DNA from: an uncultured Clostridia bacterium
Lineage (GTDB): Bacteria > Bacillota > Clostridia > Oscillospirales > Ruminococcaceae
Length of the DNA stretch: 37,292 bases
Assembly: GCA_947627455.1 (NCBI GenBank)
Contig: CANQWC010000023.1
Location: forward strand, 1 to 37,292
Reading direction: 5' to 3'
The notes below the pieces were generated by a model, which was not told where the DNA came from, made no database searches, and saw nothing but the letters and a program-made list of their open reading frames with translations. Each line of letters begins with the position of its first letter. Position 1 is the stretch's first letter. Below, one piece after another: positions 3,181 through 34,257 of this stretch. The translations under genes and the position numbers were made by a program.

Positions 3181-3837
3181 ATGGAAGAAAAATTCAACCT
3201 TAAGAGGGGAGTAATCTTCGACCTTGACGGCACGATGTGGGATTCATCCGAGGCGGTGACGGCAGCCTATAACCGAAGCCTTGAGCGCGTCGGCCTTGAT
3301 ATTCGCCTCAGCCGAAGCGACGTTATGGCGGTGATGGGCAAGACAATGACCGAGATAGCGCATATTTATTTCGACGCCATCGACCCGAACCGCGCCGAGG
3401 ACATTATGCTCGACTGCATTGAAGAGGAGAACGAATACCTCAAAACCCACTGCGGAGAGGTCTATGACGGCCTCGAAGATACCCTTCGTGAGCTCGGGCG
3501 GCGGGGCTATTTCCTTGCCTGCGTGTCGAATTGCCAGTCGGGTTATATCGAGGCTTTCTATGCCGCCACCGGCCTCGGGAAATATTTCAAAGATAAGGAA
3601 TGCTGGGGCGGAACAGGCCTTGAAAAGGCGGGGAATATCCGCCTTGTGGTCGAGAGAAACGGCCTTGAATCCGCTGTTTATGTCGGCGACACCCTCGGCG
3701 ACTATAACGCCACAATGGCGGCAGGGCAGAAGTTTATCCACGCGGCATACGGCTTCGGAAGCGTTCCCGAGGGCACGCCCGCGATAAGCTCGATAAAAGA
3801 GCTTCCCGAAGCGCTGGAGCTTTTAGAGGATAGATGA
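3181..3837 (+). CDS. HAD-family phosphatase (phosphoglycolate phosphatase-like)
   Basis: HAD phosphatases remove phosphate from small metabolites through an aspartyl-phosphate intermediate. The 218-residue product shows motif I as GVIFDLDGTMWDS (nucleophile D14, acid D16), a helical C1 cap (about residues 25-90), motif II in LACVSNCQSG, a lysine in GLEKAGNI and motif IV in YVGDTLGDYNA. I place the start at the ATG at 3181, which has GGGGGAG five bases before it; an in-frame ATG at 3139 would add 14 residues but has no ribosome binding site. Length and cap fit the Gph/PgmB-like subgroup; the substrate is unknown. The gene lies between repeat-rich spacers, with no clear promoter found. Confidence 0.85.
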   Translation: MEEKFNLKRGVIFDLDGTMWDSSEAVTAAYNRSLERVGLDIRLSRSDVMAVMGKTMTEIAHIYFDAIDPNRAEDIMLDCIEEENEYLKTHCGEVYDGLEDTLRELGRRGYFLACVSNCQSGYIEAFYAATGLGKYFKDKECWGGTGLEKAGNIRLVVERNGLESAVYVGDTLGDYNATMAAGQKFIHAAYGFGSVPEGTPAISSIKELPEALELLEDR

Positions 3838-4340
3838 TTAGAGGGTAGAAGATAGAAAAGCTTTTCCCGACTTGCGTGGATTTTGCACATTTTGAACATT
3901 TTGTCGCTCAGCGTGCGCAAAATGTGCAAAGTTCGTAAAAGTGTCAATCTGTTTTCTGCCCCTCTGCCCTCTGACAGTCTGTATGAATAATAAACATAAT
4001 ACGCATAATTGGGGCAAAAATGCTTAAAATGCGAATTATTCATAAAAGTGTCAATCTGATTTCTGCCCCTCTGCCCTCTGACAGTCTGTATGCATTTTCC
4101 GCATTTTCAGCATAATCGACCCGAAAATGTCGAAAATGTCGATTATTCACGCAACTGAAAAATAAAATTGCAAGATTACTTTTGCGATATAATGTATTAA
4201 AGTAATTTTTGGTATTTATACTGACACGCATAATCGACATAATCAGCATAATCGGCCCGAAAATGTCGAAAATGTCGATTATTCACAAAAATCGGTAAAA
4301 GCGTTTCTATCTTCTAACGTTCTAACTTCTATCTTCTAAG
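3838..4340. repeat. Repeat-packed spacer between HAD and MFS genes
   Basis: No gene. From the HAD stop codon onward it holds: an AGAGGGTAGAAGATAGAA box; a 13-bp perfect inverted repeat (3882-3894 with 3918-3930); a 50-bp direct repeat with one mismatch (3936-3985 and 4043-4092); a 42-bp direct repeat with one mismatch (4109-4150 and 4245-4286), each copy carrying a 9-bp inverted pair ATAATCGAC/GTCGATTAT or a near form; and TTCTAACTTCTATCTTCTAA words at 4306-4340. Many short words (CATTTT, GCATAATC, GAAAATGTC) recur at 9-11-base steps. It resembles a nest of miniature palindromic elements. Confidence 0.75.
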
Positions 4341-4369
4341 TTGACAAAACAACATCATGATGGTAAAAT
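4341..4369 (+). promoter_or_regulatory. Promoter of the MFS transporter gene
   Basis: TTGACA (4341-4346), 17 bases, TAAAAT (4364-4369), directly after the TCTTCTAAG repeat words and 32 bases before the ATG. Confidence 0.8.
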
Positions 4370-4401
4370 AAGGGTAAATCCCGAGGAAAAGAGGAGATAA
4401 A

Positions 4402-5688
4402 ATGAAGCTCAACACAAAGCAAACCGTTCTGATAGGCTTATCGTTTGCGTCGATACTTGCTTTTTGGCAGTTTTACGATCAGGTGATACCCGTAATTCTG
4501 GAAAACCACTTCGGCCGCTCGACGATAGTGACCAACGCAATAATGTCGATTGACAACGTTCTGGCGGTATTTCTTCTTCCGCTGTTCGGCACGCTGTCGG
4601 ACAGGACGCGGACGAGATTCGGCAAGAGGACGCCCTTTATTCTCTTCGGCACCGTTGCCGCCGTCGCGATGATGGTTATTCTTGCGCTTCTGACCGAATA
4701 TGAAAGCTTTGCGGGCTTCTTTGTCTGCCTGATGATTCTTCTTGTCGTGATGAGCGTTTACCGCTCGCCCGCGGTGGCCTATATGCCCGATGTAACCCCG
4801 AAGCCTCTGCGCTCAAAGGGCAACGCGGTGATAAACCTTGTCGGCTATATCGGCGGAATATTCGCGACCGTCGCGATGACCCTTGAGGTAAAGTCGACCA
4901 CCCTCGGCGACGGAAGCATTGAATACAACAGCTTTATACCCATCTTCATGACGATAGCGGTGTTCATGCTCATCACGGTACTTATAATGGTGTTCACCCT
5001 CAACGAAAACAAGATAGTCAGAGAGGCGAAGATCGGCGAAACAGCCGAGGAGAGGGCGAGCTCGGGCGAGAAGCTTCCGAAGCCCGTAATGCGCAGTCTT
5101 TTGTTCATACTTGCCTCGGTGTTCCTCTGGTTCACGGCCTACAACGGCGTTACAACGTCGTTTTCGAGATATTTTGAAAACCGCTACGGAATAGACGCGG
5201 GCGGCTCGTCGATGTATCTCACCGTCGCGACGGTTGCCGCGATAGCCTCGTTTGTGCCCCTCGGGGTGATATCCTCAAAACTCGGCAGAAAAAAGACAAT
5301 TTTACTCGGCATAATCCTGATGACGGTCTGTTACCTCGGCATTTTCGCGATGCCGAGCGCGGGCATAGCGATGTACGCGGTGTTTGCGCTGATAGGAATA
5401 GGCTGGGCGGGAATAAACGTAAACTCCTTCCCGATGGTGGTTGAAATGTGCCATAGCTCAGACGTCGGCAAGTATACGGGCTATTATTATGCGTTTTCAA
5501 TGGCTGCCCAGATATTCACGCCGCTCTTCTCGGGGGTATTGATAACAAAGCTCGGGTATAACATTCTTCTGCCATATGCGGCGGTGTTCTCGGCGCTGTC
5601 GTTTGTGACGATGCTCTTTGTCGCCCACGGCGATTCAAAGCCCGAAAAGAAGAAATCGCTCATCGAGAATTTTGATGTAGACAATTAG
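4402..5688 (+). CDS. MFS transporter, GPH/sucrose-type sugar carrier
   Basis: A 428-residue polytopic membrane protein with about 12 hydrophobic segments. The cytoplasmic loop after helix 2 reads GTLSDRTRTRFGKRTPFI, the signature of the glycoside-pentoside-hexuronide/sucrose carrier group, and the RSPAVAYMPDVTPKPLRSKGNAV block in loop 4-5 is also typical. A charged middle loop (about residues 205-235) separates the two six-helix halves. The start has GGAG eight bases upstream, and a promoter lies at 4341-4369. It probably imports a di- or oligosaccharide with a cation, possibly the substrate of the nearby GH43 enzyme. That link is inferred from position only. The C-terminal tail is short and basic. 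Confidence 0.85.
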   Translation: MKLNTKQTVLIGLSFASILAFWQFYDQVIPVILENHFGRSTIVTNAIMSIDNVLAVFLLPLFGTLSDRTRTRFGKRTPFILFGTVAAVAMMVILALLTEYESFAGFFVCLMILLVVMSVYRSPAVAYMPDVTPKPLRSKGNAVINLVGYIGGIFATVAMTLEVKSTTLGDGSIEYNSFIPIFMTIAVFMLITVLIMVFTLNENKIVREAKIGETAEERASSGEKLPKPVMRSLLFILASVFLWFTAYNGVTTSFSRYFENRYGIDAGGSSMYLTVATVAAIASFVPLGVISSKLGRKKTILLGIILMTVCYLGIFAMPSAGIAMYAVFALIGIGWAGINVNSFPMVVEMCHSSDVGKYTGYYYAFSMAAQIFTPLFSGVLITKLGYNILLPYAAVFSALSFVTMLFVAHGDSKPEKKKSLIENFDVDN

Positions 5689-6031
5689 AGGGTTAGAAGA
5701 TAGAATTCAGATGAACAGAGGGTAGGGGATAGAAATTCTCTGCCCTCATTTTTATGGATTATAGACATTTTAGACATTTTAGGGTCTATTGTGCTTAAAA
5801 TGCTTAAAATCCATGCAGAGGTCAGATGGTCAGACGGTCAGAAATCAGATTTATACTTTTATGGATTTTCTGAACTTTCCGCACTTTCCGAATTCCAAAA
5901 AATTTTTCTTTGCCGATGCAATATTTCCGCCCGCAAAAGCGTATTACATATATAGGGGGCGCGGACATGCGTCGGAAAAACATCGTAAACCGCATAAAAT
6001 ATTAAAATTTGATTACATTTGCCGAAAGCTA
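5689..6031. repeat. Second repeat-packed spacer, after the MFS gene
   Basis: No gene. It begins at the MFS stop codon with AGAGGGTTAGAAGATAGAA, the same box found at the HAD stop codon. Then come TAGACATTTTAGACATTTTA and, after a short loop, the inverse TTAAAATGCTTAAAATCCA, forming a long imperfect palindrome (about 5755-5815). GGTCAGA words repeat three times near 5820, and CTTTCCGAACTTT-type words near 5872-5893. The last part up to 6031 is AT-rich upstream sequence of the ABC operon. Confidence 0.65.
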
Positions 6032-14444: not shown

Positions 14445-14468
14445 GTATGCAAATTAAAAGCTTAGGAT

Positions 14469-14596
14469 CAAGCCCTTTTCAAAGGGCTTGCAGGAATCCA
14501 AAGGGCAGCGCCCTTTGGTCGCAGCCCGCAGGCTGCGAAACTCCATACGTAGTGCGCTCCGCAAGGGGTGAATTGAAAAACAGCTCGGTGAGCTGT
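14469..14596. repeat. Structured intergenic repeat, family A copy 1
   Basis: Four consecutive perfect hairpins: 14469-14490 (10-bp stem), 14498-14518 (9-bp stem, loop AGC), 14519-14538 (8-bp stem, loop CGCA), then a 54-bp conserved block 14543-14596 ending in CAGCTC-GGT-GAGCTG flanked by A and T runs (terminator-like). A second copy lies at 27018-27208 with the same order and loops but different, still complementary stems in two hairpins. Reading frames across it on either strand are not coding. It could be a small RNA, a processed 3' element or a palindromic mobile repeat. Confidence 0.75.
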
Positions 14597-14604
14597 TTTG
14601 AAAG

Positions 14605-14664
14605 AGGGGACGCCCTGTAAGAGAGGGCGTCCCCTTATGATTCGCAGCTCTGACAAGAGCTGCG
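14605..14664. repeat. Two strong hairpins following repeat A
   Basis: A 12-bp perfect stem (14605-14616 with 14624-14635, arm AGGGGACGCCCT) is followed at once by a 9-bp perfect stem (14643-14651 with 14656-14664, loop GACA). Neither has a clear T run on the plus strand. Confidence 0.7.
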
Positions 14665-14670
14665 CACATT

Positions 14671-14900
14671 AAGCCGCCGAGCTTGCGAGGCGGCCAGTGT
14701 TCGGAAAGGGTGCGGGGAAACCCAGCATGGGTGTCCCCGCTTATTACTACTCAGTCCGCGTGTGATTTTCCCCAGCAAGTAAAAAGTGTGTCGAGGATTC
14801 ACCCGATTTTCGAGCGTAAGCGAGAAAATTTCAAGCCGCCGAGCGAAGCACGGCGGCAAGTAGCGGAGGGGGTTCGGGGGAACCCGCAGGGTGCCCCCGA
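14671..14900. repeat. Structured repeat family B, two tandem copies
   Basis: Copies at 14671-14740 and 14833-14900 align along their length. Each starts AAGCCGCCGAGC, forms a GCCGCC/GGCGGC hairpin and ends in a long two-part hairpin (14712-14740; about 14874-14900) whose outer arms are GCGGGG/CCCCGC in one and TCGGGGG/CCCCCGA in the other. The last hairpin is followed by TTTTATAATC and could terminate plus-strand transcription. The stretch 14741-14832 between them holds no gene. Bases 14901-15015 also hold nothing recognisable. Confidence 0.65.
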
Positions 14901-26987: not shown

Positions 26988-27017
26988 AAGCAAAAGCCAT
27001 AAAATTTCGCTTGAGCT

Positions 27018-27208
27018 TTTTTCAAAAGGCTTGCAGGGGTCAATGAAAGTTGGTATTCCTGTCAAAATTAAAAGTTTTCGATCCAACCTTTTACAAAATG
27101 TGGGTGGGGGTCGAGGGGGCAGAGCCCCATCGTCGCGACCGCAGTCGCGAAAACCCATACGTAGTGCGCTCCGCAAGGGGTGAATTGAAAAACAGCTCGG
27201 CGAGCTGT
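27018..27208. repeat. Structured intergenic repeat, family A copy 2
   Basis: Same order as copy 1 at 14469: a TTTTCAAAAGGCTTGCAGG start, a GGGGC-AGA-GCCCC hairpin (27116-27128), a 7-bp hairpin with loop CGCA (27133-27150), then the 54-bp block 27155-27208, identical to 14543-14596 except one base in the loop of the last hairpin. A ~75-base AT-rich stretch (about 27040-27108) is inserted between the first and second parts relative to copy 1. Confidence 0.75.
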
Positions 27209-27226
27209 CAGTTATCACAAAGTTGG

Positions 27227-27531
27227 GCAAAGGCGTAAGCCTTTGCAGAACGATGCTGACAAAAGTGCCCTATCCGTAGATGGATAGGGCATCGTTTGAA
27301 CCCTCGTCGGGTTTTCCCCGCACTTAAAGCCCCTTACCCATTCCCACGCTTACAATCAAAGTAAAACAATCCAATCAATCCGGCGCCAGCTTTCGAAAAT
27401 GAGTAGGCGTCAGCCCTATATATTGCTATATTAGCCCAAAACCCATAATCCGAGCCTCCGCTTCGTGCCGTTCGCTGATCGTTTATCTCTACCGCAAATT
27501 CACTGCCCCCTGTACGTGCTTCAAAACGCTC
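27227..27531. other. Hairpin-rich spacer between repeat A and the tetR promoter
   Basis: Two further perfect hairpins follow repeat A: 27227-27246 (GCAAAGGC/GCCTTTGC, loop GTAA) and 27266-27291 (10-bp stem, arm TGCCCTATCC). CCCTCGTCGGG near 27301 is a small stem. From about 27330 to 27531 I see nothing I can name; a minus-strand frame there does not look like a known protein. Confidence 0.5.
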
Positions 27532-33236: not shown

Positions 33237-33418
33237 ATGCTCAAATTCTGTCTGCACTGGTTGCTTTTTCTCGAATTTAAGTGTTACTGAAGCGAAAACA
33301 GTCGTCAAAAAAATTGCACAATAAAGTTGTCATAAATGTCTTGCGCTTTGTGATAAACGGAGAAATTTTAAATTTTCGGCAAACTTTTTTTGAAAGTACC
33401 CTGATTTTTGCGAAAAAA

Positions 33419-34257
33419 ATGTACGTTGTATCGTGAGAGGGGTATGTGACACTGTTAATAGGAATTTTACAATCGTGGGGGTGTCCATTCGCTGAAAAAA
33501 TGTCCGTTTAGTTTGAAGGCAAAAAATTTTTTGATTGGATACCTGCTTTTTGAAGAAAAAATGTACGTTGTAATATGAGAGGGAAAAACTTGTCCGTTGT
33601 AAAGTGAGAGGAATCATCAAAGCTCTGTTTGGCTTTTCCGGCGCGAGGAAAATTAGCAAAAAGTTTACATTCGCATACCCGATCATTAGCCAAAATTTTG
33701 TCCGTTTAGGGTGAGGGGGGTAACACAAAACTTGAACGCTGTGATTTACCCGACGGAGAGAATTTGCAAAAATTTTCATCTGTTACCTTGATATTTTCCG
33801 AAAAAATGTACGTTGTAATATGAAGGGCATATTTTTCATTCACAAAAAATTTACAAAGCTGCATATGGTCGTTCGATGAAAATTTGTCCGTTTAGGGTGA
33901 TGGGAGCAATACAAAACTTGGACGTTGTGATTTATCCGCCAGCGAGAATTTACAGAAAATTTACATTTGACACCTTGATATTTTTCAAAAATTTGTCCGT
34001 TAAAGGTGAGAGGGAGAAATAATTTTGCAGCATTAGTGGACAAATCTGCACCGAGATGTCCGTTATAAAGTAGAGAGATTTTTTGATGAGATTGCCGAAA
34101 ACTTGGCAAAAAATAATTTTTCGGTGTGGAAGAGATTGAGGAATTGGCAAAATCAAAAAATTAGCGTTGAAGGTAATGCGGAAGATTGTGTTCATATAAA
34201 ATTTACATTTAAGGTGTCACCATTCGCGCAAAAAATGTCCGTTGTAAAGTGAAAGGA
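33419..34257 (+). repeat. Ten interspersed copies of a ~22-bp direct repeat upstream of mobC
   Basis: Copies start at 33419, 33500, 33561, 33590, 33698, 33806, 33884, 33993, 34056 and 34235. Consensus: aaaaWTGTMCGTTgtaaagTGAGAGG. Spacing ranges from 29 to 179 bases; parts of the intervening sequence also repeat (33724-33828 resembles 33910-34014, period about 186). The last copy merges into AAAGGAGG, the ribosome binding site of mobC. Minus-strand frames here only read the repeats. Bases 33237-33418 show nothing else nameable. The array is a candidate origin or relaxosome/initiator binding region of the element. Confidence 0.85.

What the first reader, a model, noticed from the sequence alone, without database searches (positions are those of the whole stretch)
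14469..14596. Two-copy intergenic repeat whose hairpins differ but stay paired (with 27018-27208)
Both copies share the same order: a TTCAAA(A)GGCTTGCAGG start, a hairpin with loop AGC/AGA, a hairpin with loop CGCA, then an almost identical 54-bp block ending in a terminator-like CAGCTC/GAGCTG stem. In the CGCA hairpin the arms are TCGCAGCC/GGCTGCGA in copy 1 and TCGCGAC/GTCGCGA in copy 2: the bases changed on both sides together. The AGC/AGA hairpin also keeps a stem with different bases. Changed but complementary stems beside a conserved single-stranded block suggest selection on RNA structure, or a mobile palindromic element moved by a transposase elsewhere. It does not match a named RNA class I know.
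Basis: partly seen in the sequence, partly recalled or inferred. Interest (0 to 1): 0.8.

Follow-up and report, generated by a model that had tools for sequence, protein, structure and literature searches.

The report
Dispersed hairpin-array repeat in gut bacteria
The two repeats belong to a large family of short, mobile-looking DNA elements made of five or six hairpins in a row, scattered through the genomes of many gut bacteria, whose hairpins differ from copy to copy while their two sides stay matched.

Summary
The window copies (14457-14634 and 27071-27243) belong to a dispersed family: 41 BLAST matches in this genome, model matches in 52 of 295 genomes of the order. The unit, about 178 bp, is AAAGTTTTCG, hairpins HP1-HP2-HP3, a conserved GCGCTCCGCAAGGGGTGAATT block, HP4 and HP5. 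Of 128 model matches, 14 neighbouring pairs are tail-to-tail and none head-to-head. No Rfam family matches it, nor do the phage, plasmid and viral collections. Covariation is strong but nearly free of wobble: G-T is 1% of pairs against 11% in tRNA stems. G-T and A-C are not significantly unequal overall, though HP5 leans to G-T. Within this genome different hairpins are nearly unlinked while the two arms of each are fully linked. I read it as a non-autonomous REPIN/BOX-like element whose hairpins are kept paired at DNA level, by arm-to-arm correction and exchange between copies. Four own copies sit inside IS1-type MITEs with 8-10 bp matching flanks. What moves the bare unit is unknown; no transcript data were on hand.

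The parts
14457..14634 (+). Copy 1: complete 178-bp unit (left end AAAG..., HP1-HP2-HP3, core, HP4, HP5)
   Evidence: cmsearch R1 214.5 bits, E 3.9e-68, a model sequence itself; fold z -6.99
14469..14490 (+). HP1 of copy 1 (CAAGCCCTT/AAGGGCTTG type)
14498..14518 (+). HP2 of copy 1 (CCAAAGGGC-AGC-GCCCTTTGG)
14519..14538 (+). HP3 of copy 1 (TCGCAGCC-CGCA-GGCTGCGA)
14554..14574 (+). Conserved core block GCGCTCCGCAAGGGGTGAATT
   Evidence: 32 copies of the 30-nt core with up to 3 mismatches in this genome
14577..14599 (+). HP4 of copy 1 (CAGCTC-GGT-GAGCTG with A/T flanks)
14606..14634 (+). HP5 of copy 1 (GGGGACGCCCT...AGGGCGTCCCC)
14643..14664 (+). HP6 (CGCAGCTC...GAGCTGCG), present after HP5 in many copies of this genome
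27010..27070 (+). Likely remnant left arm (HP1 and a CCTGTCAAAATTA linker) stacked in front of copy 2
   Evidence: similar stacking in other copies
27071..27207 (+). Copy 2: left end, HP1, HP2, HP3, core (27166-27186), HP4
   Evidence: cmsearch R1 match 27071-27243, E 5.7e-35
27208..27299 (+). Different module (CAGTTATCACAAAG...GCATCGTTTGA) in the place of HP5; also seen in several other copies

Best explanation
A dispersed, non-autonomous, mobile-type DNA repeat built as an array of five to six near-perfect hairpins. Singly, or as a tail-to-tail inverted pair that would fold into one large branched hairpin in single-stranded DNA, it sits between genes of gut bacteria titled Oscillospiraceae, Ruminococcus and the like. 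Shown: the multi-copy family, the anatomy, the inverted pairing of a minority, arm-to-arm covariation with little wobble, near-free assortment of hairpin types between copies, and four copies inside IS1-type MITEs with matching flanks. Inferred: each hairpin is kept complementary at DNA level, by replication template switching from one arm to the other and by short exchanges between copies, so that hairpins evolve as separate cassettes; the bare unit is moved in trans by an unidentified enzyme, possibly acting on single-stranded hairpins.
For: Copies: 41 matches in this genome; 16 of 60 genomes, own included; 52 of 295 genomes of the order in 38 of 148 genera. No exact 21-nt core in viral contigs, no blastn match in plasmids or phages. 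Turnover: at the ung locus this genome and G017 carry the unit and at least five syntenic relatives do not; 1 of 14 G017 copies examined shares a site with an own copy. Orientation: 14 tail-to-tail, 0 head-to-head, 1 same-direction neighbours within 500 bp among 128 model matches. Covariation: 97.1% of 1533 cells pair and 163 cells are changed on both sides, against 51.1 in shuffles and 8 and 16 when slid by one column. Wobble: 58 G-T, 41 A-C and 112 other against 5484 Watson-Crick; 16 tRNAs, 22 G-T of 192 stem pairs (Fisher p 4e-15). Assortment: n=25, six between-hairpin tests p 0.08-0.94, 22 distinct combinations of 25; arms of one hairpin, and the HP2 linker with HP2, linked at 0 of 5000 shuffles. 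IS1 capture: four copies with 8-10 bp matching flanks; IS with the same ends and similar frames in this genome.
Against: No constant target duplication at the ends of the bare unit, no helper identified, and no close relative for an exact empty site (nearest 82% in ung DNA). Only 28 of 128 model matches are in tail-to-tail pairs. Assortment is not perfect: with 44 of 73 left ends classified, HP2-HP3 p 0.013, HP3-half p 0.036, HP1-HP2 p 0.051. One of five measures does not exceed shuffles: further pair types 36 against 37.6 (465 of 500 as high). HP5 shows G-T over A-C 23:4, HP1 8:2, HP2 13:8, which suits RNA for those hairpins. Inverted loops, one possible mark of template switching, are nearly absent (one ACC loop in the 28 of 33 HP4 variants printed). 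HP4 of copy 2 scores as a minus-strand terminator. The genomes compared are mostly multi-contig assemblies.
Confidence: 0.6

Rival explanations
1. A family of structured RNAs or RNA regulatory elements (for example bidirectional transcription terminators) under selection for RNA folding; the high copy number reflects useful domestication.
For: Strong covariation; strong folding; HP4 has A-runs before and T-runs after it in the 33 aligned units, and in copy 2 it scores as a minus-strand terminator; HP5 G-T over A-C 23:4; convergent over divergent gene gaps 22:8, p 0.016.
Against: Wobble is about ten times rarer than in tRNA stems and G-T and A-C are not significantly unequal overall. HP3 has no T-run, yet the anchored count gives 949 Watson-Crick, 0 G-T, 3 A-C and 32 other. 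In tandem gene gaps orientation is 25 to 15. No Rfam family. No terminator-like hit inside the unit of copy 1.
Confidence: 0.2
2. All copies were spread by IS1-family transposition; the bare units are IS1 MITEs that lost their outer ends.
For: Four own copies have outer inverted ends and 8-10 bp matching flanks; IS1-type elements with such ends occur in the genus and in this genome.
Against: The outer-end pattern matches only 7 times in this genome against 68 left ends of the unit. Carriers G005, G010, G011, G016 and G028 have units but no outer-end match. In the captured copies the outer arm joins just before the unit's own left end.
Confidence: 0.1
3. A REP/REPIN system: units moved as single-stranded DNA by a Y1 (HUH) transposase acting in trans.
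For: Inverted pairs, hairpins, three solo closed palindromes; Y1 matches over the cut-off in 6 of 13 carriers against 2 of 17 non-carriers in the genus, p 0.049.
Against: This genome has no Y1 match. G004's ten matches, several partial, look like a multi-copy insertion sequence (inference). No invariant GTAG tag: 13 of 32 own cores lack GTAG.
Confidence: 0.1

Closest known systems
REPIN / BIME (REP doublets, for example of Pseudomonas)
   Same: Extragenic hairpin units in inverted pairs, non-autonomous, many per genome; long solo palindromes as deletion products (PMC3116915, passages)
   Different: 178-bp arrays of five to six different hairpins instead of one palindrome of about 20-60 bp; 13 of 32 own cores lack GTAG; no Y1 transposase in this genome; hairpin types assort nearly freely
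BOX elements of Streptococcus pneumoniae
   Same: Modular, folded, dispersed repeats of variable length (PMC3049150, passages)
   Different: No sequence comparison was made; here paired arms change together and discrete hairpin types combine nearly freely
MITEs (here IS1-type MITEs of the same genus)
   Same: Four own copies lie between IS1-type inverted ends with 8-10 bp matching flanks
   Different: The unit itself shows no constant TSD, and outer ends are few against left ends, 7 to 68
Template-switch evolution of RNA hairpins (Monttinen and Loytynoja 2022, PMC8794818)
   Same: Both arms change together without lasting G-U states; proposed single-event mechanism (abstract and passages)
   Different: Described for RNA genes; here in dispersed DNA repeats, apparently without strong RNA-level selection

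Membership tests
REP/REPIN | Short palindrome with GTAG (or CGTC) tag at one end | tested here: not met
   The only GTAG looked at lies inside the core and is missing in 13 of 32 own cores; no constant tag seen at the unit ends of the alignment; CGTC was not searched for
REP/REPIN | Inverted doublets as the replicating unit | tested here: inconclusive
   14 tail-to-tail, 0 head-to-head, but only 28 of 128 matches are in such pairs
REP/REPIN | Y1 (RAYT) transposase in the same genome | tested here: not met
   PF01797: no match in G000; it rings in 5 of 14 control genomes
MITE | Terminal inverted repeats matching an IS, with target duplication | tested here: inconclusive
   Met for four IS1-captured copies, two exact and two with a mismatch; the bare unit shows no constant TSD in 15 rows
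MITE | No coding capacity, many copies, intergenic | tested here: inconclusive
   41 matches; of 153 units 70 were placed between ORFs and 36 overlapped an ORF in a crude calling
Rfam structured RNA | Match to a curated covariance model at gathering score | tested here: not met
   0 matches in the window; one T-box and nothing on the units in 20 related loci
Structured RNA in general | Covariation with G-U tolerated on one strand | tested here: inconclusive
   Covariation strong; G-T 1% of pairs, G-T:A-C 58:41 overall, HP5 23:4
Structured RNA in general | Transcription | not testable with these tools
   No RNA-seq on hand
BOX element | boxA-boxB-boxC module sequences | not tested
   Resemblance is of layout only; no pneumococcal sequence was compared

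The most novel reading that the evidence does not exclude
Each hairpin is a separately inherited cassette. Across dozens of copies in one genome the hairpin types are close to linkage equilibrium with neighbours 20-40 bp away, while the two arms of each hairpin are rewritten together in single DNA-level events (template switching or a dedicated single-strand hairpin exchange). The family would be a natural record of arm-to-arm copying in bacterial chromosomes, spread through a whole order.
Probability: 0.35. Interest if true: 0.8.

Novelty: new variant of a known kind. Interest (0 to 1): 0.55.

Why it matters
How compensatory changes arise without lasting mismatched intermediates is an old question in hairpin evolution. 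Here one small genome holds dozens of copies of the same hairpins in different paired states, so the process can be measured directly, with the linkers as internal controls. The family is also a possible source of false calls: it shows strong covariation, as an RNA gene would, while it may not be an RNA gene.

Tried and rejected
Two-copy repeat: rejected. Known RNA family: no match at Rfam gathering scores; the permissive search of the first locus lists nine hits, all below their gathering scores. Phage or plasmid origin: nothing found; the viral-contig scan was for the exact 21-nt core only. Y1 transposase as present helper in this genome: not found; a weak genus-level association remains (p 0.049). 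TSD for the bare unit: none constant in 15 rows, two of which are the same element and one (L208) is doubtful. Exact empty site: the held genus (31 genomes, own included) has no relative closer than 82% in ung DNA. Simple scans: around copy 1, two terminator-like and two promoter-like hits, none inside the unit; around copy 2, no promoter-like hit and two minus-strand terminator-like hits, one of them HP4 and one in the inserted module. Literature; no listed title or abstract start describes this family, and the library lacks preprints and most subscription papers. PMC10589994: passages only, two on a CRISPR repeat and one reference entry. PMC3733652: passages only; the words Firmicutes, Clostridi, Ruminococcus and Faecalibacterium have 0 occurrences in its main text.

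Caveats on counts: searches use 153 core-bearing units, deduplicated by sequence, so copies without the core are left out; a few of the 139 HP4 assignments are plainly other hairpins. Searches use 128 model matches from 100 chosen loci, not deduplicated; at least four places were fetched twice (for example L064 and L215, L340 and L164). The tRNA yardstick is 16 distinct tRNAs, acceptor and T stems only. In one search, 29 of 73 left ends were dropped because a hairpin could not be classified. One search printed 18 of 30 ung loci. G028 (L123) keeps a left-end remnant there, G016 (L133) a solo palindrome and G019 (L131) a left arm, so they are not among the five without the unit; G026 (L138) has a longer interval without it and is not counted. 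The 14 G017 copies are those scored (14 of 51 candidates). One search shows only hits over 250 bp. One search printed 21 of the 25 matches. The flank matches were read by eye with offsets of up to two bases. One search was an empty script. Counts from capped or filtered searches are lower bounds.

Full report
What is there. The two places share the stated order of parts: a 62-nt block 95% identical, HP3 arms changed on both sides, and an AGC/AGA-loop hairpin. The fold of copy 1 (window 14457-14634) is -90.9 kcal/mol, z -6.99, with 0 of 200 shuffles as good.

Not two copies. The own genome (1.99 Mb, 40 contigs) has 41 BLAST matches to window 14460-14600, itself included, 32 cores with up to 3 mismatches and 68 left ends with up to 3 mismatches. 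The reversed-pattern controls are 0 in both pattern searches. Among 60 genomes, own included, 16 match; 12 of 30 other genomes of the genus match. A covariance model (R1) built on 33 units (25 own, 8 from relatives; A1) matches 52 of 295 genomes of the order, in 38 of 148 genera (stricter filters). Viral contigs hold no exact 21-nt core; plasmids and phages give no blastn match.

Anatomy. The unit is AAAGTTTTCG, HP1, HP2, HP3 (TCGC...GCGAAA), the core GCGCTCCGCAAGGGGTGAATT, HP4 (triloop) and HP5. In more distant families most of the 21 matches printed keep the left end and the string of hairpins while the 3' half diverges. In this genome left arms lead to the core (24) or to another 3' half (20) among 44 classified of 73. 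Neighbouring units closer than 500 bp are tail-to-tail 14 times, head-to-head 0 times and same-direction once, among 128 model matches; so 28 of 128 are in tail-to-tail pairs, and the second member usually scores lower. Three closed solo palindromes of 44-46 bp were seen. Copy 2 is a composite: a likely remnant left arm (27010-27070), the unit from 27071, then a different module (27208-27299) in place of HP5.

Covariation. On A1, 97.1% of 1533 cells pair, 20 of 47 pairs have changes on both sides and 163 cells are changed on both sides (shuffles 51.1; slid by one column 8 and 16); the number of further pair types, 36, does not exceed shuffles, 37.6. Copies are related, so these counts are not independent events. 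One orthologous comparison helps: at the ung locus this genome and G017 share HP1, HP2 and HP3 types, but HP4, HP5 and HP6 differ on both arms; G017's HP6 holds one G-T pair.

DNA or RNA. A transition in a Watson-Crick pair can give G-T or A-C, but only G-T pairs in RNA of that strand. Over 128 matches and 47 pairs there are 5484 Watson-Crick, 58 G-T, 41 A-C and 112 other cells, with 321 gap cells set aside. G-T versus A-C has p 0.11. In 16 distinct tRNAs of the same loci 22 of 192 acceptor and T-stem pairs are G-T, 1 A-C and 1 other. In the anchored count HP4 has 1581 Watson-Crick, 3 G-T, 2 A-C and 1 other over 139 copies and 33 variants (28 printed), and HP3 has 949, 0, 3 and 32; HP5 (1521, 18, 7, 39) and HP2 (816, 25, 5, 86) are less clean. 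Against the DNA reading, HP5 is 23:4, HP1 8:2 and HP2 13:8 for G-T, so RNA may matter for HP5. HP4 is 6:8 and HP3 8:19, part of the last being misalignment of its short form (inference).

Assortment. In the 25 own units of A1, none of six tests between different hairpins is significant (p 0.08 to 0.94), and there are 22 distinct combinations of 25. Positive controls work: the two arms of each of four hairpins, and the HP2 linker with HP2, are linked (0 of 5000 shuffles); the other linker tests and HP4 arm with its own loop are not (p 0.18-0.42). With 44 of 73 left ends, weak links appear (HP2-HP3 p 0.013, HP3-half 0.036, HP1-HP2 0.051; the other three 0.14-0.40). So hairpins are nearly, not wholly, unlinked. 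That HP2 carries its linker along suggests exchange of pieces between copies; the one-pair steps between HP4 variants suit arm-to-arm correction.

Mobility. At the ung locus the unit is present in this genome and G017 and absent from at least five relatives with the same convergent MutS-like neighbour (G021, G003, G005, G011, G018); G028 has a left-end remnant. Of 14 G017 copies examined, only this one shares its site with an own copy. Four own copies (L102, L121 which is the place of L078, L027, L020) lie between outer inverted ends with matching flanks of 8-10 bp, two exact and two with a mismatch, read by eye with offsets of up to two bases. Elements of about 900 bp with such ends (L280, L281, and L005 in this genome) were found. 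In L281 one frame matches InsA (PF03811, 30.4 bits, cut-off 26.1) and one matches InsB weakly (PF03400, 21.9 bits, cut-off 24.1); the L280 frame scanned gave no match. The frames in L005 resemble these by eye and were not scanned. L280 and L281 show no clear duplication of their own. The bare unit has no constant duplication and no identified mover. PF01797 is absent here though commoner in carriers (6 of 13 against 2 of 17, p 0.049).

Gene context. Of 153 units, 70 could be placed between ORFs: 40 tandem (25 same, 15 opposite strand), 22 convergent, 8 divergent; 42 were too near a locus edge, 36 overlapped an ORF in the crude calling and 5 had no neighbour. Background convergent and divergent gaps are about equal (100 and 95 pairs, 23,909 and 23,668 bases). 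Convergent over divergent, 22:8, has p 0.016, as expected if promoters are avoided, or if the units serve as terminators.

Comparison with the known. It works like REPINs (inverted hairpin doublets, solo palindromes; PMC3116915, passages) and has modules like BOX elements (PMC3049150, passages), but it fails two REP features tested here (tag, Y1 gene) and matches no Rfam family. The best mechanistic parallel for paired changes without lasting wobble is template switching (PMC8794818, abstract and passages); that paper also reports that compensatory changes with loop inversion are extremely rare, so the lack of inverted loops here is weak counter-evidence.

Verdict. A real family of dispersed hairpin arrays, found across the order and matching no Rfam family; a new variant of a known kind, with an unusual and testable pattern of hairpin evolution.

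Noticed in passing
L280, L281 (G019) and L005, about 1864-2766 (own genome, near C1:54666-55567): IS1-type elements of about 900 bp with ends GGGAGTGTNCAAA..CGCCCACA. The end pattern matches in 9 of 30 genomes of the genus, in several as facing pairs about 85-115 bp apart that look like MITEs.
   Followed up: partly
window 27317 to at least 28400: A block (TetR regulator, start of a DUF308/MMPL cluster) 91-94% identical in DNA to G017, G003, G016 and G028; the upstream sequence differs in the three printed (G017, G003, G016). Its left border lies beside copy 2.
   Followed up: partly
window 14673-14900: More hairpins downstream of copy 1 (GCCGCCGAGC..., GGGGAAACCC...GGGTGTCCCC, GGGGGAACCC...GGGTGCCCCC) that recur after other units.
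   Followed up: no
window 3823-5887 and 33381-34257: Two other repeat-rich regions: imperfect AT-rich repeats of 40-107 bp, and a five-copy family with the AAAAAATGTACGTT motif.
   Followed up: no
core block GCAAGGGGTGAATT of the units: The conserved block resembles a Shine-Dalgarno sequence (recalled), as do GGAAGGGGAGCG and AGGAGGGTAGC in sister 3' halves; no reading frame behind it was looked for.
   Followed up: no
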